Shown here: positions 538 to 64,000 of the stretch, piece after piece | Position numbering within the stretch: position 1 is the stretch's first letter | Layout: each line of letters begins with the position of its first letter | Origin: Tubulanus polymorphus | Taxonomy: Eukaryota; Nemertea; Palaeonemertea; Tubulaniformes; Tubulanidae | Direction of reading: 5' to 3' | DNA: 64,000 nt | NCBI RefSeq assembly: GCF_964204645.1 | Contig: NC_134028.1 | Location: 21,984,153-22,048,152, forward strand | Position numbers and translations under genes: made by a program | Notes under the pieces: generated by a model | What the model was told of the DNA's origin: nothing | Database searches by the model: none | What the model saw: the letters and a program-made list of their open reading frames with translations, nothing else

Positions 538-3500
538 TTAACTGATGACATAATTTACGTAAACTACAGCGGTTATTGTAAGTAATGTAACGTATGATTT
601 GGTCTGTGCGCCTTTGCTCGTTGTACAAATGTTGTATCTTTTATCCGACTCATGACAGTGGTTTTTATTCGGTCCGATACAAGCGGCGTAGCCCATCGCG
701 TGCGCTATATAATTCTGTTCAACGACCCCGTTAAACAGGAATGACATCGGTCCTCGCGCGTAGATCGACACGTCTTCGCCACCGTGCGTCTCCTCTTTCA
801 GGTTGATACCGGATTCCTGCCTATATTTCAAAGCCCCTGCCGAGAGATAGAGAAAGTATGTGAACGTTATCACAAAAATAACGGGTTTTATGCTGCTGCT
901 GCGGCAAGTGATGAACCGCCAGGATCGCTAGTAGTTACTTAGTCGTCTCCGTGTGGCTCCGTCGGTAGAGTGCTGCGCTACTGTGCTTGCGTGTTCGAAT
1001 CTCTAGCGTTCAATGAAGCCTCTTCGTTCGACTGTGGCAATCGAGGATTCCGCTTTTGCCACAGAAATGTGAAATATTTGACCCCCACAAATTTCCTCAC
1101 AAATCAACAATGCAACCCTGATTCTGCAAAGGTTTTACTGATACCAAGACCCATCACAGCAACCCCTTGCCCACAAACATCCAACCGCCAGATTTTCGAA
1201 CCCGCTCCCCTGTCAGGATGGAATTAGGACCAATCCCTTGTGAAAATGTAGTGTGCAGTTTGGGGTTTTAATTGACAAACCTGTTTGTTTTGGCGTGAGT
1301 AGTTGACGGGAACCGTTAGTTTTACTGATGGCGTAACCGGGTCCGTTAGTGTACATGAGAGTCGTGAACGGTAGATTGGACGTGTCGTTTTCGTAATCAT
1401 TCAAACCTGAAATTATCGATAAGTATAAATAAGATTTCATTATACAAATCAATTAAATGATAACAATAAATTCATTAATTCGTGATTCACCAAACAAACA
1501 GGCAATATTGTGAATAAAGCTAAAAAGCAAAGATCACGGGTTTTTTGCCTGGCCGATATGAACGCCCGCACTATGAAGCCTGCGAAGTTTCTTCGACATC
1601 GGTCTTTATAAGTTAGTTCATGTACGGTTTTCTTTCAGGAAGCGTCACATACGGGTTAAGACATGCACTAGATATGTGGACCGAAATGAGCGTCAAGAAA
1701 CAAAGTCATGATGCAACAACTTCGAAGTGTATCGAGGATAACGAAGACACAATGCTTCCACTAATACAGCCCATCGGTGGCGGTTGTATGAACTAAAAAG
1801 GACACGGGCGGTCAAGATTAATGTGCGCCGACATAAACTCAGGAAATACTATACGATTACATAGATAGCATAGAGTTCGGTGTTAATATATGAAAATGGT
1901 TGGTATCAAAAATGCATAAAGAGATTCCTTTAAGAGATGTTTTTTTTGCTGGTATGAATTATACATTATGCATTATAGATAGAGTCTTGGATGCTGCACC
2001 ATAGATTGCGGAGACTTGGCATACTCAACGACAAAAGATAATCAGGGAATTTACAACATTTTAGGGGCTGTCATGTATACATCACTTATTGTATCTAACC
2101 ACCAATATGGCGTCGTCGAAAAAGCTACAATCATGACTATACGAACTGTATATGTATGTCAATATCGAGGCATTTTTGATGGTATATACTTCAAAGGATC
2201 AGACACTTTTATATGCACAAAATCTATTTCGGTGAAGGTCAAACATCGAACTATAGAATACAATACTCTTTGATATCTCTATATCGATATATATGCACTA
2301 TCGAATATACGACGAACTGTGCAAAAAAATTCGTGGAATCCTGCGCGTTGTCTTTCACTAGCCAACTAGCCACTTAGCTACTAACTAAGAATAGGATTTT
2401 TTTTTATTCGGTAGACGTCCTGAATTAAATGTAATCTTATGAATCATGTGTCTTAATTTTCAAGCCGACTTGTCGGAAAAGAAGAGGATTCTTTTGATAA
2501 CGATATCTCGCAAAGTTTTTTTCATGCCGTACCCGACGTTAGAAACGCGAAAACCTTACCGAATAGAGGACTTCCTCTAGTGGGATATCCCCCAAGATCA
2601 AATACATGCGAATGATCGGCAGTTACGACGGTTAATGTATCTCTAACCGAAGTGAGTTGTTCTACCTCTCCGATCGCTGCTTCAAACGCCCAGCTGTCTA
2701 TGATTGCCAGTTTTGCCCATGACTCGTGATGACCGTGATCGATTCTGCCGCCTATAAAATCAACATAAAGTCAATCAGAGATCAAGCATATTATAACAAT
2801 AAACTTAAAAGTTTATCAATAAACTTAAACTTAAACTTATAACTCCGAGTAATCAATGATTACTCCAAGCATATACAGGACTAGCACGATACCCGTCTTA
2901 GACTGGTTGATAGGTAAAACATAAACACATCAGCGGTACAGTACGAAAAATAGCTCATGAACTTTAGGCTACAGTTCACCAATTTCCTCACAGAGGGCGA
3001 CATCCTCCAAAATGGCTGATGATGTTTTGTATTTCATTTTGCTATGATTTTTTTAAACTTAATCTAATACCTCCTTGTATATATTCTAATTTCTAACAAT
3101 GATAAATACCTTCCCGTGGATATTCAGGACCAAAGAATCGACACATCAACATGAGACTCCCCGCCCAATAACCTGGATGAGTTCTCCAAAAACCTCCAAC
3201 CAATTTGTATAGTTATCCAGGAAGAAAGACACTAAATATTTGGATGGATACATGAAAGCTGTGGGTACTGGAGTGTGTAATGGGTAGTGTAGTGTGATCT
3301 GTGTGCATTTGTGGCCAGCACACAGATCACATTGTTCAATGGGGTTTGGTCCAGGACTCGCGAGATTTTCAACAACACGGAAGTAACGTGTAATAAATGA
3401 TGACTTGAATTGCATGACTACCTACCACCCCTCATTATTGTTGGAAAACTAAACGTTCCGCACTGACTAAAAATTAGTAATAACATTTTTGAAATGGCCA

Positions 3501-6500
3501 GAATTTTAACTTAGGTTCCATCTCATTTTTATTTTACAATAACGATTGGTATAATTTTTTTCTATCGGCTAGATAACAATCACCCGTGCAGTGTTTTGTC
3601 GATTGTGTCGTTTTACCTTCTACGAGTAAGAAGAATCCGTTTTTATTCTTCTTCAGAATCTCGATGGCTTTTTTGGTCATTTCAGCAATAGACGGTTCAC
3701 CCGCTGTATCATTGAGCCTTTCACCTTCGTACTGCATATGACTGTATTCGAATAACCCTTGAATATCAAGTAAATGAAAAGTACATGTAAGTCCAAAAAC
3801 CGTTATGGATGTGAAATCTTGGTTTCTACGAAAAATGAAGCAATCTTTTTTTCATTTACCTAAAACACGGTCAACATTTTTCGGGTTAATTTGATCGAAT
3901 CCATTCTTATCGTGGACGTACGTGTGTCTTAGGTTGGCTTTCTTCTGGTTGGCTTTCCATTCCTGCATAACACCATTACAATAACGACTCGTACAGTATT
4001 AAACAGTAATATATACGGGCAGAAAAATCGTGGGTCTTTCGTCGAATGCAACATTATTCACAAATATCAAATAATATTCGATTTACTAGGAAACCCTTAG
4101 CATATGAACTACGCGGTTTTTGGTTCTGGCCACCCTGGATAAGCCCCCCCCCCCCTGGACAACGCACATGTGCTTGCTTCCGCGTAACTTCGCTCTATTG
4201 GTGGTGAAATACGAAAAGCAACTTATCCGATAGATATGGTGGCTGATAAGGGCCATAGCGTAAAATTCCTGGTATGTAAATGAGGGCGCCAGAACGCCAG
4301 AACGCCAAAACGAAAAAAAAACGTCCAATTTTCTCTAGAAGTTCGTTTTGGCGCGCCAAAACAAAGAAAATTCCGTTTTGGCACCCCCGCCAAAACGAAC
4401 TTTCATTTTGGCGCCCCCGCCAAAACAACGAAAAACGTCCAATTTTCTCTGAAAGTTCGTTTTGGCGCACCAAAACGGAGAAAATTCCGTTTTGGCGACC
4501 CCGCCAAAACGAACTTTCATTTTGGCGCCCCCACCAAAACGAACTTTCGTTTTGGCGGCCACGCCAAAACAATGAAAAACGTCGAAATTTCTCTAAAAGT
4601 TCGTTTTGGCGCGCCAAAACGAAGAAAATTCCGTTTTGGCGCCCCCGCCAAAACAACGAAAAACGTCCAATTTTCTCTGAAAGTTCGTTTTGGCGCGCCA
4701 AAACAAAGAAAAGTTCGTTTTGGCGCGGTTATTTCCGTTTTGGCGCCCCCGCCAAAACAAGCATTCAACGACAATAAAATTATTTTTCAATTTGGCGCGT
4801 TGATCTTGTGTGTAATTTGCATAAATTTGCATATATGAAAATATTTTACGTATATATAGAATTATTTTACGTGGTTTAAAGTTCGTTTTGGCGGGGGCGC
4901 CAAAACAGAATATTCGTTGTTTTGGCGCGCCAAAACGAACTTTTAGAGAAATTTCGACGTTTTTCGTTGTTTTGCGGGGGCGCCAAAATGAAAGTTTGTT
5001 TTGGCGGGGGCGCCAAAACGGAATATTCGTTGTTTTGGTGCGCCAAAACGAACTTTTAGAGAAATTTCGACGTTTTTCGTTGTTTTGGCGGGGGCGCCAA
5101 AATGAAAGTTCGTTTTGGCGTGGGCGTCAAAACGGAATTTTCTCCGTTTTGGTGCGCCAAAACGAACTTTTAGAGAAATTTCGACGTTTTTCGTTGTTTT
5201 GGTGGGGGCGCCAAAACGGAATTTTCTTTGTTTTGGCGCGCCAAAACGAACTTTTGGACGAGAAAATTGGACGTTTTTTTTCGTTTTGGCGTTCTGGCAT
5301 TTACATACCAGGAATTTTACGCTATGGCCCGTATCAGCCACCATAGATAGACCCTAGACTTTCGTAAATCCCTTCAATTCAGTAACATAGTTCAATCATA
5401 GCAAAAATATCCTTTTTGAGCGCCTTTATGCAAATATATGCAAATTTAACTCAGGGGCAAAGCGCCATATTGAAATTACCGCGCCAAAAGGGCAAAAAAT
5501 CCGTGTTTAAAATTTTAAATCAACTTCGTACTTCCATTCTGGTGTCCTCATTTGCATATCAGGAATTTTACTTCATAGCCCGAATCAGTCACCCTAAAGA
5601 ACCCTCCGCGCTGTGCCACTCATGCATAACGGTGGCAATCATGCATAACAGAAGGGAATTCATACTAAAATTTTAGCATATTTTATTTCATTGCTTGTCT
5701 AAAAGTTGAAAAACAATAACTAATTGTTCCGAGATTTACGAGATCAGTTAACATGACCTATCTCGGAGTTCGAAGAATAACCTACTTAATACGACTATAT
5801 CATAGTATGTCTTTCTATTTTTTTCCGTAACGCAAACGCGCTATAGCTTTTTGCCTTTGTGCGTTTATTATTTGTTGAGATATAATATATATGCGCAAAC
5901 ATACGAGCTTCGAATATAATTCAACCAACGTCGAAAACGAATCAGATTAAAAAAAAAAAAGACTGTCAACACTTTGTATTTATTCGTGATATATTTGCGT
6001 CATCGCGAAAGGTTAAAATACGTATATCAAAACAGAGGTAAAAAAAAAAAACTGTGATCACGTCGTGTGAATTACTGAATATAGTTCTCTGAGTTTCAGT
6101 TTCAGGCTTGTCCGTCAAAAATTCGGTACCACCTGAGGATGTCCTATTTTTCTTTGGTTCAAATCTTTGGAAATTGCAACAGGGTTTTATTTTTCAAAGT
6201 TTTCCTAGGGAGGGCCTCGACACCCCCCTTATGGCTTCTCGCCACTCGTGGATAGTATAATTATCGCGCTTTTCACCGGGTGCTTCCCCTCGGTCAGTAT
6301 AAGCTCTGAATCCGCTTCTGATTGGTGCTCGTGAAATATTTGTATATCATTCTAATTGATGCGGGCCAGTTTTTGTTGATGTCACAGAACTATTTCCTAC
6401 CGTTACAAGGTTTCGACCATCTGTTCGTTTTCCTTTCTTGTTTGGATACTCCGGATCTGTGTCACTTTTCGTGTAAAAGTGGCAACGACCTCCTCCGAAT

Positions 6501-8714
6501 ATCACCTACAACAAAAATATACATACGGTAAAAGATGAAATAACAAAACATGTTCGACGGCTCAATAAATATGGTTCGTTTTTTCCACTATTTCATCACT
6601 GGCGAATCGAATCTAATCTAAAACAATATTGCATCACATTCTGTTTTCGCGTCAAGACCTGTGTTTATTTGCACCGAAAATCATCGCCGTCCGAACTCCT
6701 AAATTCGTTTTGATATTACATACGATAAAGCTCGGTCAAAATCACGTTCAGGCGTTTTGTCAAGAGCACTTCAATAAGGCTCTAAGAACCCAGTTTTACC
6801 AGGCTATCGTTTCGAATGATCGGCGGTTCTATACTGATCTTCCTCGCTGAGCAATGGTCGCGTGTTACTACAACGCTATCGATGAACAACACCACATCGT
6901 TACTGAATCTCCACGAATGGACATGTACTTACGTCGAGATCTTTCCCATCTCCGTCTATGAGTTGAGCGGCGATATCTTTACATTTTCCAACATCGGGCG
7001 CTGGTATTTTTGTGTTATCCTCCCAGTTCCGATCGACTGACTGTGCGTACAGCGCTCCCGGTGTCGCGTGAGTAACCTTAGTAGTCGTTACCATTCCGAC
7101 ACTTTTCCCTAGATCGTATGAAACATTAGTTTAAGCGGCTTGAATAAAGCAATCCGTTGACATTTTTTTACAGTTTGAAAAGACCCACAACGATAAAACA
7201 ATCATACATCTTAGACTACTGAAACTGATGAGCTTAAACTCAACATGTCTATCGATGTTTTCAAAGACATCATCAGAAATCCCCGAAATTGTTGTGGCGT
7301 CAATGAAGCATTTCATTTCTTCAAACATCATGTGGGATTTCACTTTCGTGTGAACCCATTGATTCTCTCCAGTAACTCAGAACTAGATGGGATGATACTG
7401 TTGCATTGACTTAGCATCAGCGCTCAGTGACAAGCGGGTTCGAGTCCTGCTTGTTGCGTATAATGCACGGGCCGTGGACCCCAGTGGGGTTAGTCTTGGG
7501 TAACCAAGATCCGAACCACGTGAAGTAAGATATATAGAATTATATCTCAAAAGCCACATACGTATCGCTTCAAACGTAGCAACTTTTATCGACTATTAGT
7601 ATTTGAATGAAGTCTTGACAAATAGTATATATAATGGTGGTCCACAATAGCACAATTCCGTATCTCAACATCTCATATAGATTGTATGGAATGAGACATT
7701 AAGAATCATGAACAAACTTTACTTGCGACGATATGGGTCCAAAGTGCAACGATCAATGTTTGTATTGTATTTGTAGTTTGGTGCCTACCTGCATCCTTCG
7801 CCCATTTTAGGATCGAATGGAATTTGTTATTCGGGTCGAGCGTGGAGCATTTACCGCGTTCAACAGTGTCGTCGACGCCTAGAACTCCGTACTTGGTCTT
7901 AAAACCGCACAGCATAGCAGTGGCGGTACCAGCCGAATCAGCCACTTGATGGTCTGTATTATACGTCTAATGCAGAAATGGAAAATATATTCTATTCATT
8001 CATATTGTTCAACTTGGATTGACTTTCAACTTGAAAATCAATGCGCCGAATAACAGAAATACCAGCGTTAAACGATTACAAATCGAAAGCATGATTTTGT
8101 TCAGACCTTGGATAACGCGACATTCGGGAATTTATCGTAGACCAGCTGGGTTTCTTCGCCTAGTTGACCTTGCGATTGACCCTTGTATATTCGAGTAGCT
8201 ACGACAGTCGGCAGTCCCATTCCGTCGCCGATGAAAATAATGACGTTTTTGGCGACATTGATATTTGGCATATGATCCAATCTGTCTTTAAGCGTATCTT
8301 GGCCAATTTTGTTCCAGAAATCGGCATCTATACATAATTCAGAAAAATACATAATACATTTTTCATCTAACCTTAACTATACTGTAAGGACGTTTAGAAT
8401 TCTATTTCGACAAAATGAACATAATGGCCTTAAATTATAAACATTTCAGTCGACTCTATCAAATAGATAATCAATCAGACGTCCTTAACAAAAATATATC
8501 ATATATTTTCTTAAACAGCGCACTCTAACAAACTATAATCAGCGCGCTATACATCAGTACGAATTTCAATTTTAGCTGAGCAATTTTAGTATCTCATTCC
8601 TCTGTTTTCTTAAAATGACTTACTCTCTGTTTTACGCGGTACGGCGCAGTCCAAGCCGGTCAAGTAAAAAAGCGGGACGCACGCTACAACAACTACTACC
8701 GCTCGGTAAGACAT
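538..8714 (-). CDS. Alkaline phosphatase, GPI-anchored type (10 exons, complete)
   Basis: Exons (minus, 5' to 3'): 8624-8714, 8107-8327, 7789-7966, 6933-7108, 6401-6505, 3860-3962, 3617-3757, 2560-2751, 1281-1406, 538-836. All junctions are GT-AG and the phases join into one 543-residue frame, the usual family length. A signal peptide covers residues 1-24. IFIGDGMG gives the first metal Asp. D114-S115-A116 carries the catalytic phosphoserine. Metal ligands follow in DHGHH (343-347), TADHSH (382-387) and ETHGGED (His462). A hydrophobic tail at 519-543 follows a short polar stretch and fits a GPI-attachment signal. The enzyme would be a Zn/Mg ectophosphatase that hydrolyses phosphomonoesters at the outer cell surface. 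Exon 2 has a weak donor (GTCTGA). The 2.4 kb intron between exons 5 and 6 holds a foldback element. Family assignment is very secure; tissue role is unknown. Confidence 0.96.
900..1065. repeat. Fragments of a dispersed repeat family in phosphatase intron 9
   Basis: The stretch near 918-935 (CCGCCAGGATCGCTAGT) recurs near 63142-63160. The stretch near 1036-1052 (GGCAATCGAGGATTCC) recurs near 9415, 41317, 43702 and, partly, 46922. A TTCGAATC box near 994 looks like the B box of a tRNA-derived SINE. The element is not complete enough to bound. Confidence 0.45.
4229..5352. mobile_element. Foldback (long inverted repeat) element built of TTTTGGCG...CGCCAAAA units
   Basis: The two ends are reverse complements. 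GGTGGCTGATAAGGGCC begins near 4238 and runs on to about 4300; its inverse is at about 5285-5345. Inside, both arms consist of short palindromes such as TTTTGGCGCGCCAAAA and TTTTGGCGCCCCCGCCAAAA. These are separated by spacers (near 4434-4456 and again at ~4580 and ~4665) that recur in inverted form in the right arm. The arms meet at an AT-rich centre near 4790-4880. The unit recurs about every 130 bp, so long open frames exist on both strands, but they translate only the repeat. No transposase is seen, so the element is non-autonomous. It sits inside an intron of the phosphatase gene. Confidence 0.85.
5395..5592. mobile_element. Degenerate second copy of the foldback element's right end
   Basis: The stretch near 5546-5592 matches the outer right terminus at 5298-5342 with several changes (TATCAGGAATTTTAC is shared). 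The stretch near 5420-5500 resembles the AT-rich centre of the main element, including the doubled ATGCAAAT-type motif and GCGCCAAAA. Most of the palindromic array is missing. Confidence 0.6.
7420..7540 (+). repeat. tRNA-derived SINE copy
   Basis: It contains a B-box-like GCGGGTTCGAGTCCTGCT at about 7435, then GGGCCGTGGACC and a tail AATCCGAACCACGTG-like segment. The same order of blocks occurs at 53530-53660. It lies in an intron of the phosphatase gene. No intact cloverleaf is present, so it is not a tRNA gene. Confidence 0.55.
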
Positions 8715-9889: not shown

Positions 9890-10882
9890 TCAGAATTTTC
9901 GTCCGAACAAACCTAATGTCAAACACCAAACTAAAGTTTGGAGAAATCCCCTCCGGATGAACGCGTAGATGAATAGATTAACGGATACATTGAACATCTC
10001 GAACATGAGAAACGCAAAGAAAAAATAGAAATAGTCAATCGAACCGTATTGTTTATTAGCGATAACTTCATACGTCCCTTCGAGAAAACTGACGAAACAT
10101 AAACTCACTACGACCAGCGCTATGTTGACTGTGTTTCGGTTTGTTTTCCCTTTAGATAAGTCCTTTCGCTTTAGGTTCGCCGCTAGGATCGTAAACACGA
10201 CGTGAATATTCAACAGCATCGCCAACGAGAACGGCAACGTTTTCGTCAGGATCGAATCGACAGTGAAGAAAAAACCCCACAGAAACGACTGCCACACCGG
10301 GCCGTAGTCGGCGATCGTGAATTTCAGAACGACTCGATCGCGATCGCCGCAAGAAGCCGTTTCGATCATCTTAACGACGAAGTACTGCGGCAGCGTATGA
10401 ACCCCGGCGAATAGAAACAGCGAGCACGTTACGAGTTTAGCTCTGTGAACGGTGCAATACCGTGGCGCCTTCAACGGGAATATAACCGCTATGTAGCGAT
10501 CTACGGTAACGGCTAAAGTGACCGATTGACTGGTGTATCTAGAGACCATTACGACGTAGTCTATCCCGGCGTATTTACGGGCGATTTCGCGCGACCAATC
10601 GCCGTCGACGTAACCGTACAGTTGTAGGTAGTAGTTCAGTTTCGACAAGGTGCTCGATAAGGACGCGATTCCGTCAGCGATGGCCAGAGCTCGCAAGTAG
10701 AATATACCGCTTCCGCGATGTCGCATCGCCGTAAACACGACGAAACTGAACAGATTACCAACAACTCCTATCACGCACATAGTCCCGTAGATACCGAACA
10801 AAACGGCCGTCAGCAAACTTCTGTCGTATTCGCTACAAATCCAATCCGTTCTCTCTGAATCATTCGCCAGTGAGAGATCCAT
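9890..10882 (-). CDS. Class A (rhodopsin-like) GPCR, orphan, neuropeptide-receptor type
   Basis: This is a single-exon reading frame of 330 residues with seven hydrophobic segments. I take the first ATG (10882), not an upstream in-frame TTG. The short extracellular N terminus has an N-glycosylation site (NDS, residues 7-9). TM1 carries GN (VVGNLFS) and TM2 carries a LA-AD motif (LRALAIADG). TM3 ends with DRYIAVIFPLKA, the class A DRY signature with the following P. TM7 has NLFIYAF, so the usual NPxxY is NLxxY here. The layout resembles invertebrate FMRFamide- or peptide-type receptors, but the ligand cannot be named from sequence. It acts at the plasma membrane. It runs the same way as the five somatomedin-B receptors next to it but is unrelated to them in sequence. 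Confidence 0.88.
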   Translation of the reverse strand: MDLSLANDSERTDWICSEYDRSLLTAVLFGIYGTMCVIGVVGNLFSFVVFTAMRHRGSGIFYLRALAIADGIASLSSTLSKLNYYLQLYGYVDGDWSREIARKYAGIDYVVMVSRYTSQSVTLAVTVDRYIAVIFPLKAPRYCTVHRAKLVTCSLFLFAGVHTLPQYFVVKMIETASCGDRDRVVLKFTIADYGPVWQSFLWGFFFTVDSILTKTLPFSLAMLLNIHVVFTILAANLKRKDLSKGKTNRNTVNIALVVVSLCFVSFLEGTYEVIANKQYGSIDYFYFFFAFLMFEMFNVSVNLFIYAFIRRGFLQTLVWCLTLGLFGRKF

Positions 10883-11929
10883 ATTTGGCGGCACGAACAA
10901 CTCGTTTGTTTATCTTTTCAGAAACGTGTGGCGTGCTTGTCATGCGAATCTTAACCGAAGCGAAATTCGAGTCGTCTTATTCACATGGATTTTGCCATCA
11001 GCAAATGGTGTCAGGAAACCATCTTTTCACTTTTATATACATATGTGTATTAAGTTTCGCATAAGTCTATTATGAAATGGCGATTTTTACGTGCAACGTG
11101 TGTACGTTAACACGCGAGTGAATGTAAAATTATAGGTATATATATATTGTTGGATTGGGCGAAAATATCTGTTTGAAAGCATTTCGCTAAAGATTCATAA
11201 CAATAGTAATAACAAAGAGTAAAATCCGTTGGAATAAGGTTTCCTAAAATATGAGGTGTGAGGCGTTTGTTTCTATATACGTATGCGTGTGGGGCTATTC
11301 ATTTAGAATTTCAAACATAACGCTATGAACGATGTAAAACTGTGGGGTTTAATTGGTACAGCTCGTGATATATTGTCGACGTCAGTATTAATGAGTTTTA
11401 CGATGCAGGAACTCTAATTATAGAAGGCATATCGTAGTTAACTCATCATTCCAAGTAGTAAGGGGGAGGGGAAAGCGTGTGTAATTTTACAATAGATAAG
11501 AAAAGTTCTTTCGGATATTTCTTCAGGGGTATTGAACACAAAGTCGACTATTTATTTCAAATATTTAGCTGAAAAAAGAAATCGATATTAATTTGAAACT
11601 TTTTTTTTCATCTGTATTCTGTTAGGTGGAAGCTGTATATTTCGAAATCACCGTTCAAGGCCGTATTTAGGTTAATTAAATGAATTCATTATCGATTAAC
11701 ACCTTGAAGGCTGGTCTACAGTGCTTTCGTCGTTTCTTTTGAAGCGTATTCCTTGTGCCGCTTCCACCTGATTCCAATAACTGAAATCAAAATCACACCC
11801 GTTCGTATATCTCTCCTCGGAATTTGTTAACGATGCGCATCAATGTGCATGGTGCATGCTACGAGCAATTGGAACCACGGGCAATTAGCGGTTTCTACTA
11901 TACCTTAAGAAAAGAGTTAACAGTTGGTA

Positions 11930-16646: not shown

Positions 16647-17144
16647 CTAATGTCTATTTATTAATTGATGAGACCTGTTTTTCTTGGATATTTTGCTTAC
16701 TTTTTGGGGTACATACCTCATTTATGTTCCAGTTCTGTACCAATTAGATGGATTGGCAAAAAGACTCCTTAAGTCAGATTGAATGAGAGAGAAAATCCTC
16801 CATTTTGTGAAATTTCTTGAATTTTTACATTGTCACCATGCCTACGAAATGAAGTTATTTTTCTTGTGGGGTCTCAACAACTAAATCAGGGTGGCGTAGG
16901 CATGGTAACAATGTTCAAATCCAAGAAATTTGACAAAATGGAGGATTTTCTCTCTCATTAAACTGGACTTAAGGAGTCTTTTTGCCAATCCATCTAATTG
17001 GTACAGAACTGTAAATATATCAGATATTCAGTTGTTGTCCGCGATTTTTGGCATTCTGTTAAGACATAAATGAGGTATGTACCCCAAAAAGTAAGCAAAA
17101 TATCCCAGAAAAACAGGTCTCATCAATTAATAAATAGACATTAG
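16647..17144. mobile_element. MITE-like element with ~80 bp terminal inverted repeats
   Basis: The left end (CTAATGTCTATTTATTAATT) is the reverse complement of the right end at 17125-17144. The arms continue through GATGAGACCTG, TTTTGCTTACTTTTTGGGG and ACATACCTCATTTATG. Inner arms also pair: AGAGAAAATCCTCCATTTTG at ~16793 with its inverse at ~16940, and the TCTGTACCAATTAGATGGAT block with its inverse near 16990. There is no coding capacity. A TA or CTA target duplication is possible at the ends. Confidence 0.85.
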
Positions 17145-17699
17145 CCTGAATCTTATTATCATGTTTTGTGTGGAGCTTAAGTCTAAAGATCCTTAGTTTT
17201 TTATTCATCGACTTTTAGCATTTGAATGCGGTAATTTCACTGTAGATATATTTTTTCCCATTTTTCACCATTTCACACCATATCGACCATAATCAATTTA
17301 TGTGATTCATTTTTCATGATTTACTATGTAGTGGACGTCATCTACCACATTCATGACGTATAGACATTTTCAACAATCCCGGAAAATCTCATCGGTAACT
17401 CCGGTGACGACATGGACAGTGTCAATTACGTCATAAAAGAGATGAAAATTCGGTGTAAAAAGAAAATCCGATAGAAAAGTGCGAAAGAAACGACGTCTGC
17501 GTATCGACCTGTCGACAGGTCCGCTTGTCGATTTATCCGGTGCGGCGGTCCGTCCATTGGAATTAAATGACAAGTGCCCGGACAGGGTAGAAATTGAATT
17601 AAATAAACATATCACCGTTTACTTATTTTATTTACATAAACATACATGTATTCTTTCGTACACACATATGTATATATGTAATATATTTATTCTATTATT

Positions 17700-17939
17700 C
17701 TAACCACTGCATTTAGCTTTGAAGCCACGGTCGTAACCAAAAGAACAGTGTTTCTTCATTTTTTTCCAGATTTTCTTGAACCATCCTCGTTTCATCAGTT
17801 CAACGGTTCGTTTGGCCTCCATCAACTCCAGCGGGTCGTGTCCAGCATTTTCAGCGTCTCGAAGAGCTCGTTCTACTTGATCACCAGCAACGGCGACCAC
17901 CAGTAAAACACACAACACAAAAACAGCCGACAATTTCAT
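17700..17939 (-). CDS. Small cationic secreted peptide precursor, antimicrobial/lytic-peptide type
   Basis: This is a 79-residue precursor in one coding exon. Residues 1-19 form a clear signal peptide, followed by an acidic pro-region (~20-49) that ends in Lys-Arg at 50-51. The predicted mature peptide (52-79, 28 residues) begins GWFKKIWKK, a cecropin-like amphipathic start. It carries about +8 net charge and has two cysteines (65 and 77) that could close one loop. This signal-acid-KR-cation plan is typical of host-defence and lytic peptides; activity is inferred, not shown. A 3' splice site (GATTACAG) lies 16 nt upstream of the ATG. Minus-strand AATAAA motifs lie 9 nt (17686-17691) and about 68 nt (17627-17632) past the stop. 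A decayed partial copy is at 19919-19978. I do not recognise a named family. Confidence 0.75.
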   Translation of the reverse strand: MKLSAVFVLCVLLVVAVAGDQVERALRDAENAGHDPLELMEAKRTVELMKRGWFKKIWKKMKKHCSFGYDRGFKAKCSG

Positions 17940-18604
17940 TTTACCGGGGATTCTTCTGTAATCAATGAATTACAGGTCATTAATAAGGAAGTATATTTGA
18001 GGATGATATTTACACCAACATAAGCTCACTGAGTGCATTATAGTCATGGACATTTAAGCTACTTATAGGAATTGTATTCGGCAGAATGTTTTTACCAATG
18101 ACGCTCAAAAAATTAGATATTTTCTTGGTAGAAGTTGATGAATCATTGAGATTGAATAATAGTATTATATATGTTTTATCTGAATGTTACACTTTACTAT
18201 TACTACTGTATAATCATACAGTAAAACAAAGAACATATCTCTACTTACCAAATTTTTCACTCAGTAACAAATCGAAATGCTTTCGATGAGAGATAAATGT
18301 TTCGATTTTCATCTCTGTTTATATACAACAGCCTTAATTCCTTTCTGATAGAGGAGCTTTCGGACAAAATACCGCATAGAAGTAACAAAATCCCGAACTC
18401 AAAACAGTTGTTTGTTATAGACTTAGGATCCCATTAAACATGTGTCAATTAAACTGTTGCTATTCATCAAAGTATTGTCCCTCCGAATACAAGTCATCCT
18501 AGCAGCTGTTGAACATCAAATCTGATTTAATTACCCGAACTTGAATACTGAAATCCTTTAAGCGCTTAAGCGCTAGCGTTTCGTCTTTTGTAGTTTTGCG
18601 AAGT

Positions 18605-19085
18605 GAACAAATCGATTTTGCAGGTGTTAGAAGCGCATCGATATTCGTTGAGATTATCACGGTTTTTCAGAACGGCCTATAGATAACTGACGGGGCTTAG
18701 ATTCACATTCATCTGAATTAGAATTTACAAAGTTTGTATGATTTCCCAAATGATCGTAGGTTTCTTAAAGTTTCTTCGATTTTCATTTAATTTCTTATCA
18801 GGTCTTTTTTTATACCATTTTCTATTCTTCTGTTTATATCATTCATTCTTTTGACTTCGACATTTGTAGACATGTCTCGCAAACGTTAACATATCTCATT
18901 TTTCATTAATGGTGATTTACAGTGGCAACTGCCGGATAAGGATCCAGTTAACATAAATAGCTCTTTCTGATAACGCGGAAGATCTGTGTATATTTCATCA
19001 ACATCACTTCTCTGATGTAAGTAGTGTTTGTTGTTGCCGACTATAAATCCCCGTGTACGGAACGGGATGAGAGTTTGTAGACCAA
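18605..19085 (+). repeat. Duplicated ~480 bp block, copy 1
   Basis: Shares colinear blocks with 21890-22370: GATATTCGTTGAGATTATCA, CTTTTGACTTCGAC, GCAACTGCCGGATAAGGAT, ATTTCATCAACATCACTTCT and ACGGGATGAGAGTT, each with scattered changes. The two copies are in the same orientation and bracket the peptide-gene relic and the LINE relic. Confidence 0.8.
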
Positions 19086-19918
19086 CCGCTAAATGTTATG
19101 TTACATATTACCGCAGTAATTGATTATATTTATTCAGCACACACGTCATAGCGAAACGGCGAGCAAATATTGTTCCTGTTACGATTCCATAAACATGTTG
19201 AAATCATGGTTTATGACGACTGGTTAGATTATTTTGACGAAGTGACGTCTGTGGAAAGTCCCAACGGCGCTTCCGGGAAATTCTAAACAAATTGAAATTG
19301 CTGCTGTTTGCATGTGACTTCCTATTAATCATTTCAGAACTAATTGACGACGCTGTGTAGGTTTTTTTAATCAGAATTGATGTTCATTAACTTGTTGGGA
19401 AATCAATATAATGCTAGAATTTAAAAATCCTCGGGAAAATTTCAGTTGTCTTGAAGAAATAAAAAATGAAGGATGTATTTTTCTATGTTGTTCGTACCAT
19501 TGATGACACTGAACCGTATAAACCAATACTTTAATTGAAAGATGGTGACAATCTGCCGGGACGGGATCTTACACAAAAGTCGCGTGAATTATAGAAATTT
19601 TCTTTTGACGCAATGAGAAAATTTCTTCCTTCGGGTTCATCGCAAAACGGTAGTGTAACCGAAACCATCGAGATGTAATCTTTCACAATCTGAAAATCCT
19701 CATTCGTATGATTTTAGTTAAAGATAAGGGATTGGTTTGCAAAGGGTGTAAGTTCAACATTTAGTTATTCACGCGACTGAGCATGAGTGACAAAATAGTT
19801 TCGGGATTATATTTATATCTGTCAGTCCACCTATTAGAATTAACCGTTTACTCAATTAACTTACAATATGCATACCACTTTTTTCCTTAAATATATGTAC
19901 GTGTTGATTCTTTGACCT

Positions 19919-19978
19919 AAACCACTGCATAACGCTCTGAAGCCTCGGTTGTAACAAATAGAACAGTGTTTCTTGATT
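19919..19978 (-). pseudogene. Decayed copy of the cationic peptide gene 3' end
   Basis: Read on the minus strand, this 60 bp encodes IKKHCSICYNRGFRALCSG. It aligns residue by residue with the end of the peptide at 17700 (MKKHCSFGYDRGFKAKCSG). The normal stop is lost (TTA in place of TAG), and the frame runs on into unrelated sequence. No signal peptide, pro-region or helix is recognisable upstream. It is a truncated duplicate; its position between the duplicated blocks suggests the peptide was once tandem. Confidence 0.75.
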
Positions 19979-20601
19979 CCTGACGTGTACTAATATTTCA
20001 GCATGGTTTTAATTAATATTTTCTTCTACTGCAGCTAAAACAATTTTCCACCAAAGAGCTTGCTCAGGACTCAGCAAAGCTCAAGTCCGCTCAACCAAAA
20101 CTCTCTCCCAAGCTCCCCAAAGCTCTGCTAAGCTAACTCTCTTCTTCTCTATCACAAACTCGGTTTTAACTTTGCAAATTCTGGCCTATTCATATCAATT
20201 CATCTTCCGGGTTGAGGATGATATTTAGATTGTGACCTTATTCGGTAACTTACATAATTGATAGCTGGATATTCTCGGTTGAGTGTTGGCCAACAGAATG
20301 ATTCATTGCTACGGAATTTTACAAACGATTTGATTCATAAATATGAAATTATTTCAACACGACCAGGATGAAAATTAATTTTCATATGTATTCAATATAT
20401 ATAGTAATGTGAAGATGACCGCATCGTTAGGCCTACACATATCAAAAATCCTCGAGAAGCTAGTTCATTCACGGTCTATCTAAGTTTCTTGAATACAACA
20501 AATCCTGTCTCCGTATCAATTGGTCTTAGAAAGAATCTCTTTACTAGTGACCTGTATCATCAATGAAATGATCGAAAATTCGGATGAAAGAATGACGTAT
20601 T

Positions 20602-21889: not shown

Positions 21890-22370
21890 GTTAGAAGCTA
21901 TTTGATATTCGTTGAGATTATCATAGTTTTTCAGAATAGTGTAGGTGAATGACGGGGCATAAATTCACATTGACCTAAATCAGAATCTGCAAAGTGTATT
22001 CTTTTCCAAGCTGTAGATAACTATGAATCTCACTAAAACAGAATCTTAAGTTCTTTTAAAAGTTTCTCTAACATTTTCATTTAATTTCTTGTCAGGTAAT
22101 TTTTATGCCATTTCAGCCTTTCTTTTGTTTATACCATTCATCCTTTTGACTTCGACCTTTGTAGATATATCTGGCAAACATTAACATATCTCATCTCATT
22201 ATGGTGATTTACATTGGCAACTGCCGGATAAGGATGCAGTTAATGCAAATTATCCGTTATGATAACGCGGAATATCTTGTGTATATTTCATCAACATCAC
22301 TTCTCGGATGTAAGTAGTGTTTGTTGCCGACCATAAATCCCAGTGTACGAAACGGGATGAGAGTTACGAA
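21890..22370 (+). repeat. Duplicated ~480 bp block, copy 2
   Basis: Second copy of the block at 18605-19085, in the same orientation, with scattered substitutions and small indels. It ends at ACGGGATGAGAGTT. Copy 1 has CTATAAATCCCCGTGTACGG where copy 2 has CATAAATCCCAGTGTACG. Confidence 0.8.
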
Positions 22371-62700: not shown

Positions 62701-64000
62701 ACCTGCCATAAGCTTCCCATTTCCTTACGATGTCGATTTCTATTCCCTGGTATGGTCGAGGTTACATCGTCATCTAATGGGTTTGATAATTGAAATGTTA
62801 TGTAACAATTATACCTCATCAAGTTATGCAAAGTTTGGGATTGAAAGTTATTTTTTTGTTGTTAATATTTCGATACTGGGTGCGCTTAGCTTATTGCTGT
62901 TTTTTCTTACTAGAATGTCATATCTCGCTAGTAGTTTGTTCAACGTAAGATGACTATATAAACTACTAGCTTCATTTACATTTTCGGACTGTTTTTTTTT
63001 CCTTATTATTGTCGGATCCTCTCATATCTGGTGTTTCGATCCAATATATGACTAGAAATATGCCTAGTTGTTGAATATTGCTTTCGATGAATTTTGGATA
63101 CCGGCAAGGCTACTGAGAGAAGTGAGTATACGGTGACACTCCGCCAGGATCGCTAGTGGCACTGGGTAACCGCGCTTCAATTTCTTCAACCTTTCAATTG
63201 GATTCAATTGGAGTCAACTTTTCTTATTTGTAAATCATTTTTCAGTGAAATCAATACAATACACTGCGAGAGAAAGGGAATCTATTCGATGACTCCTTTG
63301 ATAATTTTCGGATTTGGAAGCCAAGTTCAAATTTCACTAATAATCAATCTTTACTACGAATAACCCAGTGTTTTGTTTCTAGACTGGTATTACTCAACTC
63401 ATTTTCAATTGAGTTAGCCCTCGGGTTAAAGATAAAACCACAGTCTACAAAACCGGCCCCGGTGTTTTGGTGCATCTACCGATTGGTAACCTCCCCAGCT
63501 ACCCCCAAAACCCTGGGCTCCTGGTCTATCTTACCTTGAACTCTTTTTCTACCTCAGACAATTTCATCATTTCCTGCCGCAAACCGAAGGTGGTCATGAT
63601 CGGATCTGGGCTGGACAGGGCCATGTACGCCGGGCTAGCCAGCGCCCGGTACGCGTTCAGACGAGATCGCGATCGCTTCAGCGAATCGTAGTTCTGTTTG
63701 GTCACGCAATCGGTACAGTCACAGGAAATAACGTGCGGTTTTTCGATCGTGTGACTTCGGGATAGAAACATTTGAACGATCTCATGATTGTTATAATGCG
63801 CTGCTAGGATCAGTGGCGTAATGTCGGGTGAAAATTGGCTCTTTTCCTCCGTGCGGAAAAACGCATCCTTCACGCCGACCTTTTTGAACTTATCCTCCCC
63901 AGCAATGTAGGACGGGTGTTCGGTGATCACTTTGACGATTTTTGTACATCCTTTACTGATCGCGTGGAGCAAAGCTTCCTCGATGCAGTCGAAATTCAAC
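47723..64000 (-). CDS. TRPC-family cation channel (13 3'-most exons; 5' end outside window)
   Basis: Exons (5' to 3'): 63535-64000 (runs off the edge), 56834-57010, 55079-55246, 53913-54174, 53200-53481, 52439-52623, 51767-51888, 51600-51682, 51124-51320, 50189-50395, 49495-49618, 48953-49093, 47723-48219. All are GT-AG with matching phases. The first encodes ankyrin repeats and the H-CxCxxC motif (HVISCDCTDC) before SRSRLNAYRALASPAY. TM helices follow in exons from 55246 to 51124. The pore helix is LFWSMFGQV, then TM6 with LVNMLIAMMSHSF, then the TRP box EWKFARTKLW. The last exon is predicted coiled coil. It is a tetrameric, PLC-linked, Ca2+-permeable channel of the plasma membrane. It is closest in layout to TRPC3-7/TRP-gamma; the subtype is not settled. 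Confidence 0.95.
48225..48670. repeat. ~440 bp (ATCAAT/ACCAAT)n microsatellite in the last TRPC intron
   Basis: Nearly uninterrupted hexa/nonamer array of ATATCA, ACACCA and ATACCA words. On the minus strand it is T/A/G-rich and ends in the polypyrimidine tract of the last exon's acceptor (48220-48221). Long openings on both strands are just translated repeat. Confidence 0.9.
50500..50690 (-). repeat. tRNA-Ser/Leu-derived SINE, copy 1
   Basis: The minus strand starts GCGGCCGATTGGTTTAAGCC, an A-box-like D arm. It continues to AGAGTTTCTCGGTCGAAAG and TTCTTCTCTCTCCCC, which match copy 2 at 58490-58715. It lies in a TRPC intron. Confidence 0.6.
52900..53030. mobile_element. MITE-like repeat, GGGGCCGGTTGCA family, in a TRPC intron
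   Basis: AGCCGGTTGCAGGGCC is followed by TTTAAGACGATCATAG, ACAATCTAACAATC and AAGACCACTTTTGGACT. These match the minus strand of 42950-43090 in order. Confidence 0.45.
53530..53660 (+). repeat. tRNA-derived SINE copy in a TRPC intron
   Basis: It contains AGCGGGTTCGAGTCCTGCT (B box), GGCCGTGGTC and an AATCCAAACCACGT end. It has the same block order as 7420-7540. Confidence 0.55.
54340..54670 (+). repeat. Dispersed repeat, short form, in a TRPC intron
   Basis: GGCGGATCCAGGGG, GACTTTGACAGGA, AAAGGGGCAAGTT, TTTAAGAGAATAT, then TATATTTTCAAAAGGGCA and TGTGCTCC. The same blocks run on the minus strand of 59260-59890. Copy 2 has a minisatellite inserted before TTTAAGAGAATAT; this copy does not. Confidence 0.75.
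56388..56495. mobile_element. Palindromic MITE, GGCCGGTT-TAACCCGGGGTTAA family, copy 1
   Basis: TGGACTGGTATTGTCTTTAA with CCCGGGGTTAACTCAA at the left; TTGAGTTAGCCCCAGGG with TTTAAGATAACACCAGTCTA at the right. The arms are near-perfect inverses. It lies in a TRPC intron. Confidence 0.75.
57785..58005. repeat. ~58-bp minisatellite, about 3.7 units
   Basis: Units begin GTGATCGCC, continue CTCTATACAGC, a GTA-rich spacer and a GATTTCG(G/T) end. Units differ by several bases, so the array is old. Confidence 0.85.
58163..58378 (-). other. Unassigned protein-like opening in a TRPC intron
   Basis: The minus-strand frame shows a hydrophobic stretch (VVILLYILMSW), then Ser/Thr-rich, then a polar region with DLDRYKEHDYIF and NLHRDVIKYHY before TGA. 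It could be a signal-anchor exon of a Golgi-type enzyme if spliced at the GTGACA donor near its end. No ATG precedes the hydrophobic stretch and no homology is recognised. It may be chance. Confidence 0.15.
58490..58715 (-). repeat. tRNA-Ser/Leu-derived SINE, copy 2
   Basis: The minus strand reads GCAGGGGCCGAGTGGTCTAA (A box), then a CCAGGGTTTATGGGTGCAAA T-arm-like segment, then GAGTTTCTTGGTCGATTGTT and TCTCTCCCCCATTGGG. The anticodon arm does not fold properly, so it is a SINE rather than a working tRNA. Confidence 0.65.
59260..59890 (-). repeat. Dispersed repeat, long form with internal minisatellite
   Basis: The minus strand is colinear with 54340-54670: GGATCCAGGTGCAGACTTTG, GACAGAGATATG, GGGCAAGTTAACT, the minisatellite, TTTAAGAGAATAT, TATATTTTCAAAAGGGCAT and TGTGCTCC. 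The minisatellite occupies 59455-59735. Confidence 0.75.
59455..59735. repeat. 27-bp minisatellite, about ten units
   Basis: Unit: GACCCTCAAGTGAACAG then AAATTGCAAT, with A/C and small-insertion variants (CTTCAAAAGTG). The units abut directly with no unique spacers. Confidence 0.92.
60380..60492. mobile_element. Palindromic MITE, GGCCGGTT-TAACCCGGGGTTAA family, copy 2
   Basis: GCCGGTTTTATAGACTGG, CTTTAACCCGGGTGTTAACT at the left; GAGTTAACCCCGGGGTGAAG and CCAGTCTATATAACACCGGC at the right. Best-preserved arms of the three copies. Confidence 0.8.
61358..61530. repeat. ~58-bp tandem repeat, about three units
   Basis: Units share AACCTGTTACACC-type starts, CGAGTGGTGTTCAGGGGTTG and GGGAACTAGAAACC, with drift between units. 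Confidence 0.75.
62235..62570. repeat. Inverted pair of tRNA-like SINE units
   Basis: The minus strand of 62235-62325 and the plus strand of 62480-62570 share CTGTGGCAGGG, GTACCGTGGC-type, ATGCCGTCAGGTTCGAATCC (B box) and TGCCG(G/A)GG. They face each other across ~150 bp. Neither folds into a complete cloverleaf. Confidence 0.7.
63380..63462. mobile_element. Palindromic MITE, GGCCGGTT-TAACCCGGGGTTAA family, copy 3 (truncated left arm)
   Basis: AGACTGGTATTACTCAACTC has lost the inner left arm. GTTAGCCCTCGGGTTAAAG and CAGTCTACAAAACCGGCCCC form the intact right arm. It lies just 70 bp from a TRPC splice donor. Confidence 0.7.

What the first reader, a model, noticed from the sequence alone, without database searches (positions are those of the whole stretch)
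17700..17939. Unassigned cationic peptide: cecropin-like start with a two-cysteine tail
The precursor plan (signal, acidic pro-region, Lys-Arg, +8 peptide of 28 residues) is that of a host-defence or lytic peptide. The mature part combines an amphipathic GWFKKIWKK helix with a tail that could form a 13-residue Cys loop, a combination I cannot place in a named family.
Basis: partly seen in the sequence, partly recalled or inferred. Interest (0 to 1): 0.6.

Follow-up and report, generated by a model that had tools for sequence, protein, structure and literature searches.

The report
Multi-copy cationic helix-plus-loop defence peptide
An invertebrate chromosome carries about nine intact, slightly different copies of a small secreted, positively charged peptide gene that looks like a home-made antibiotic: a membrane-seeking helix followed by a ring held by two cysteines, from no named family that could be found.

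Summary
On the minus strand, 17939-17700 encodes a 79-aa precursor: signal peptide, pro-region, Lys-Arg, then a 28-residue +8 peptide (GWFKKIWKKMKKHCSFGYDRGFKAKCSG). It is a gene, not a chance ORF: the genome holds eight more intact copies, two damaged copies and one relic, all on one chromosome within 2.2 Mb. Between the window copy and all but one other, only the promoter with exon 1 and the coding exon still align; intact coding exons show no indels. Replacements concentrate in the mature peptide (13 in 28 sites, against 6 in 51 for signal plus pro). AlphaFold gives a helix, then a short hairpin spanning the cysteines, at moderate confidence. No Pfam, NCBIfam or PDB match over cut-off and no paper with the peptide was found; cecropin membership fails. 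Nearest designs are nicomicins and frog Rana-box peptides (helix plus smaller disulphide loop, different precursors) and sea-urchin centrocin (shared GWFKK only). Best reading: a lineage-restricted, probably amidated, membrane-active host-defence peptide family, a new variant of a known kind. No expression or activity data; species not identified.

The parts
17700..17939 (-). Coding sequence of the 79-aa precursor, ATG at 17939, TAG stop at 17702-17700, all in one exon
   Evidence: frame kept in nine genome copies
17883..17939 (-). Signal peptide MKLSAVFVLCVLLVVAVAG (cleavage site inferred, AVAG|DQ)
   Evidence: sequence; near-invariant in paralogs
17787..17882 (-). Pro-region DQVERALRDAENAGHDPLELMEAKRTVELMKR, ending in Lys-Arg; a second dibasic pair (KR/RR) at residues 43-44
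17703..17786 (-). Mature peptide GWFKKIWKKMKKHCSFGYDRGFKAKCSG: helix 1-11/12, Cys ring C14-C26, C-terminal Gly (possible amide donor)
17709..17747 (-). 13-residue Cys-Cys ring CSFGYDRGFKAKC, predicted two-stranded hairpin
   Evidence: strands 65-68 and 74-77 of the precursor; both Cys invariant among intact copies
17956..18248 (-). 5'-UTR intron: donor G|GTAAGT starting at 18248, acceptor ATTACAG|AAGAATC ending at 17956
   Evidence: sequence; splice sites shared by paralogs, (splicing inferred)
18249..18293 (-). Non-coding exon 1 (5' end approximate, inferred from the TATA position)
18318..18325 (-). TATA box TATATAAA
   Evidence: conserved in nearly all aligned copies (TATAAAAA in L002)
18223..18703 (-). 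Conserved promoter plus exon 1 block, 80-86% identical in ten other copies
17686..17691 (-). AATAAA polyadenylation signal 8 bases after the stop
19904..19983 (-). Relic copy: tail of the mature peptide only, with a stop
21890..22365 (-). Relic copy: upstream region of the same destroyed duplicate, cut off from its tail by about 1.9 kb of unrelated sequence

Best explanation
This is one member of a lineage-restricted family of secreted host-defence peptides. Shown by sequence: a conserved precursor and promoter, multiple intact copies, an invariant Lys-Arg, two invariant cysteines, an invariant C-terminal Gly, and replacements concentrated in the mature part. Inferred: the precursor enters the secretory pathway, a furin/PC-type protease cuts after Lys-Arg, the two cysteines close a 13-residue ring, and the C-terminal Gly is converted to an amide, giving a 27-residue amidated peptide. 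The lysine-rich helix, with W2, F3, I6 and W7 as its apolar residues, binds and disrupts anionic microbial membranes. The ring-closed hairpin stabilises the peptide or adds an aromatic and cationic surface.
For: Nine intact copies plus two damaged ones on one contig. Shared promoter, TATA, exon 1 and splice sites. Between the window copy and all others but L002, only the promoter block and coding exon align; introns and flanks do not. Among four distinct copies, 13 replacements in 28 mature positions against 6 in 51 in signal plus pro (Fisher p about 0.001); the mature part of window vs L002 has 8 nonsynonymous and 0 synonymous changes. Helix moment is high in every paralog. AlphaFold: helix, then a hairpin with the cysteines in opposite strands. 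The same broad design, helix plus disulphide loop, is antimicrobial in nicomicin-1 (PMC6265681), and GWFKK opens the antimicrobial heavy chain of centrocin 1 (PMC3561256).
Against: No transcript, peptide or activity data. No NF-kB, AP-1, STAT or IRF consensus in the conserved promoter, so no sign of immune induction. The AlphaFold model is single-sequence (mean pLDDT 76) and the fold search gave nothing significant. The window copy is the most cationic; L002 is only +4. Replacement counts are small and come from few independent lineages, and the recent copies are near-identical segmental duplicates.
Confidence: 0.7

Rival explanations
1. A lytic or deterrent secretion (venom, mucus or epidermal toxin) rather than an immune peptide: same membrane mechanism, aimed at prey, predators or competitors.
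For: Conserved prepro with a fast-changing mature part is also the pattern of venom peptide families; weak sub-threshold Pfam Conotoxin score over signal and pro (E 0.03, below cut-off); no immune-type promoter motifs.
Against: Conotoxin score is below the curated cut-off and found in only 2 of 7 paralogs; only two cysteines; species and any venom gland unknown.
Confidence: 0.17
2. A cyclic neuropeptide or hormone precursor (somatostatin-, MCH- or calcitonin-like layout: dibasic site, Cys ring, amide).
For: Dibasic cleavage, C-terminal Cys ring and Gly-stop are shared layout features.
Against: Nine or more copies with the mature peptide the least conserved part; net charge +4 to +8 and amphipathic helix; no family match.
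Confidence: 0.07
3. A distant member of the echinoderm centrocin family.
For: Mature part opens GWFKK at residue 52, against 52 by the printed centrocin 1b precursor and 51 reported for EeCentrocin 1; signal of about 20 and pro of about 30 residues; hhalign and BLAST align 12-13 residues.
Against: Similarity stops after the first 12 residues (hhalign probability 15%); centrocin 1b has no Lys-Arg before the heavy chain, and centrocins have an interchain and a light chain (PMC4805251), absent here.
Confidence: 0.03
4. A decaying or non-expressed duplicate.
For: Some copies are damaged: L010 and L011 carry stops, and a relic lies at 19904-19983 and 21890-22365.
Against: The window copy has intact frame, splice sites, TATA and AATAAA, and an alignable promoter.
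Confidence: 0.03

Closest known systems
Nicomicins (Nicomache minor, polychaete; BRICHOS-related)
   Same: N-terminal amphipathic helix plus a C-terminal loop closed by one disulphide, cationic, made from a longer precursor (PMC6265681)
   Different: Nicomicin ring is six residues (Cys24-Cys29) and its precursor is 239 aa with a BRICHOS domain; here the ring is 13 residues in a 79-aa precursor without BRICHOS
Rana-box frog skin peptides (esculentins, gaegurins, ranalexins)
   Same: Helix followed by a C-terminal disulphide loop
   Different: Loop of 6-7 residues, different signal and pro (own knowledge); no sequence match to any PDB chain, frog peptides included if deposited
Centrocin 1 heavy chain (Strongylocentrotus droebachiensis)
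   Same: Starts GWFKK; similar signal and pro lengths
   Different: 30-residue chain with one Cys linked to a light chain; no Lys-Arg before the mature chain; no ring
Cecropins (PF00272)
   Same: Lysine-rich amphipathic N-terminus beginning with GW (own knowledge)
   Different: No profile match; second part here is a Cys ring, not a second helix

Membership tests
Cecropin (PF00272) | Matches the Pfam cecropin profile over cut-off | tested here: not met
   Protein scan lists only sub-threshold Conotoxin and DUF5363; genome search has no cecropin match over cut-off
Nicomicin / BRICHOS-related peptides | BRICHOS domain in the pro-region | tested here: not met
   79-aa precursor with a 32-residue pro-region, no BRICHOS match; the one BRICHOS exon found in the genome is elsewhere (C9)
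Nicomicin / Rana-box design | N-terminal amphipathic helix plus C-terminal disulphide ring of 6-7 residues | tested here: inconclusive
   Helix and ring predicted, but the ring is 13 residues and the disulphide is inferred
Centrocin | Heavy chain, interchain and light chain in one precursor | tested here: not met
   Precursor ends at residue 79 after a single two-Cys peptide; alignment limited to 12-13 residues
Conotoxin (PF02950) | Score above the Pfam cut-off of 25.1 bits | tested here: not met
   15.7 bits, E 0.03
Membrane-active host-defence peptides (functional class) | Kills or inhibits microbes by membrane disruption | not testable with these tools
   No assay; only sequence-level support

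The most novel reading that the evidence does not exclude
An independently evolved, multi-copy peptide family with a two-module scaffold (aromatic/lysine helix plus a 13-residue disulphide-clamped beta-hairpin, C-terminally amidated) not shared with any described antimicrobial family.
Probability: 0.45. Interest if true: 0.45.

Novelty: new variant of a known kind. Interest (0 to 1): 0.38.

Why it matters
It adds a multi-gene, apparently unreported peptide family with a helix-plus-large-ring design, a possible further case of convergence on the Rana-box/nicomicin plan. It also gives about four distinct natural mature sequences to compare for the effect of ring and charge on activity. If confirmed it would be a useful new invertebrate defence family, not a new principle.

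Tried and rejected
Family searches: Pfam, NCBIfam and PDB by sequence and fold gave nothing over cut-off. Literature strings GWFKKIWKK and variants gave no paper; GWFKK alone gave eight papers, of which I opened two, a centrocin paper and a conopeptide data set listing centrocin 1b. Viral and prokaryote contig scans found no relative. Capitella teleta was considered as host: the only BRICHOS exon found lies in a locus that reads, by eye, like an ITM2/Bri2-type gene rather than capitellacin, which is not decisive. Host identification by COX1, molluscan haemocyanin, erythrocruorin linker, arthropod cuticle RR domain and assembly-size text searches all came back empty; such absences are weak here. 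Immune promoter motifs were looked for and not found. The window's Rfam and tRNA scans were empty.

Full report
The finding is correct in its letters. On the minus strand, 17939-17700 is a 79-codon frame. It reads MKLSAVFVLCVLLVVAVAG, then DQVERALRDAENAGHDPLELMEAKRTVELMKR, then GWFKKIWKKMKKHCSFGYDRGFKAKCSG and a stop. The mature part has net charge +8 without counting His. Its first twelve residues have a helical moment of 0.68, reached by 2.2% of shuffles of the same residues. The pro-region is only mildly acidic (net -2).

It is a gene rather than a chance frame. The host genome (268 Mb, a eukaryote; the window lies at C4:21984153-22048152) holds eleven copies of the precursor plus one fragment, all on contig C4 between 19.93 and 22.14 Mb. 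Nine are intact. L010 has a stop in the signal peptide. L011 has a stop in the pro-region and a shifted, Cys-less mature end. A further relic lies in the window itself: a tail at 19904-19983 and an upstream block at 21890-22365, separated by about 1.9 kb of unrelated sequence. The 19.93 and 20.46-20.72 Mb copies sit in recent segmental duplicates, mostly over 90% identical across several kb. The window copy, L002 and L011 are older. Between the window copy and nine of the ten others, only a block of about 485 bp (promoter plus exon 1) and 240-295 bp around the coding exon still align; the exception is L002, which aligns through the intron at 79%. Intact coding exons carry no indel.

Gene anatomy is shared by the copies: a TATA box (TATATAAA at 18318-18325), a short non-coding exon 1 ending at 18249, a GTAAGT donor, a 293-base 5'-UTR intron, an ATTACAG acceptor, and the coding exon. 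The window copy has AATAAA at 17691-17686. Splicing is inferred from sequence only. The promoter block was found in the genome only with this family.

Selection pattern: comparing four distinct copies, 13 replacements fall in the 28 mature residues and 6 in the 51 signal and pro residues (p about 0.001). Window against L002 has 8 nonsynonymous and no synonymous differences in the mature part. The counts are small and the copies are not fully independent, so I read this as support, not proof, of diversification. Invariant among intact copies are KRGWFKK, W7, both cysteines, HCS, and the C-terminal CSG. A C-terminal Gly before the stop is the usual donor for peptide amidation (own knowledge), so the active form may be a 27-residue amide; this is inference.

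Structure: AlphaFold on the single precursor sequence (mean pLDDT 76) gives a helix over residues 36-62 and two strands, 65-68 and 74-77, which puts the cysteines in facing strands. The disulphide itself is inferred. The PDB fold search gave nothing significant.

Identity: no Pfam or NCBIfam family over cut-off, no PDB sequence match, no paper with the peptide's strings. Cecropin is excluded as a family. Centrocin 1 shares GWFKK and the prepro lengths, but lacks the Lys-Arg and the ring and carries an interchain and a light chain. The best design match is nicomicin-1 and the frog Rana-box peptides, helix plus C-terminal disulphide loop, with a smaller ring and different precursors. So it works, in my reading, like those peptides without being a member of their families.

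Most likely mechanism: secretion, cleavage after Lys-Arg, ring closure, amidation, then binding and disruption of anionic microbial membranes by the aromatic/lysine helix, with the ring giving stability or extra membrane contact. A venom or mucus role with the same chemistry is the main rival; a hormone role is unlikely given copy number and the fast-changing mature part. No conserved NF-kB, AP-1, STAT or IRF consensus was found in the promoter, so immune induction is not supported by sequence.

Limits: species unknown; no expression, mass or activity data; absence results from the genome search tool are weak for this genome.

Noticed in passing
12555-39742: Five large single-exon secretin-type (7tm_2) receptor frames in tandem on the minus strand (four confirmed by Pfam, the fifth by likeness; two with a detectable somatomedin B domain): a local receptor expansion.
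   Followed up: partly
16647-17144: Long inverted repeats (arms 81 and 120 nt, 92-99% complementary), MITE- or fold-back-like, just downstream of the peptide gene.
   Followed up: no
541-8376: Alkaline phosphatase exons on the minus strand (541-927, 3537-3851, 8104-8376; Pfam PF00245).
   Followed up: no
9893-10909: Single-exon rhodopsin-like receptor (7tm_1, Srw-like) on the minus strand.
   Followed up: no
4198-5353: Repeated [15 protein letters not shown]-type sequence open in several frames on both strands, likely a minisatellite rather than a protein.
   Followed up: no
63529-63999: TRP channel fragment with ankyrin repeats (TRP_2) on the minus strand, running off the window end.
   Followed up: no
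L011 (C4:22140882-22141073): A paralog with a stop in the pro-region and a frame shift that replaces the Cys ring by a different cationic tail.
   Followed up: partly
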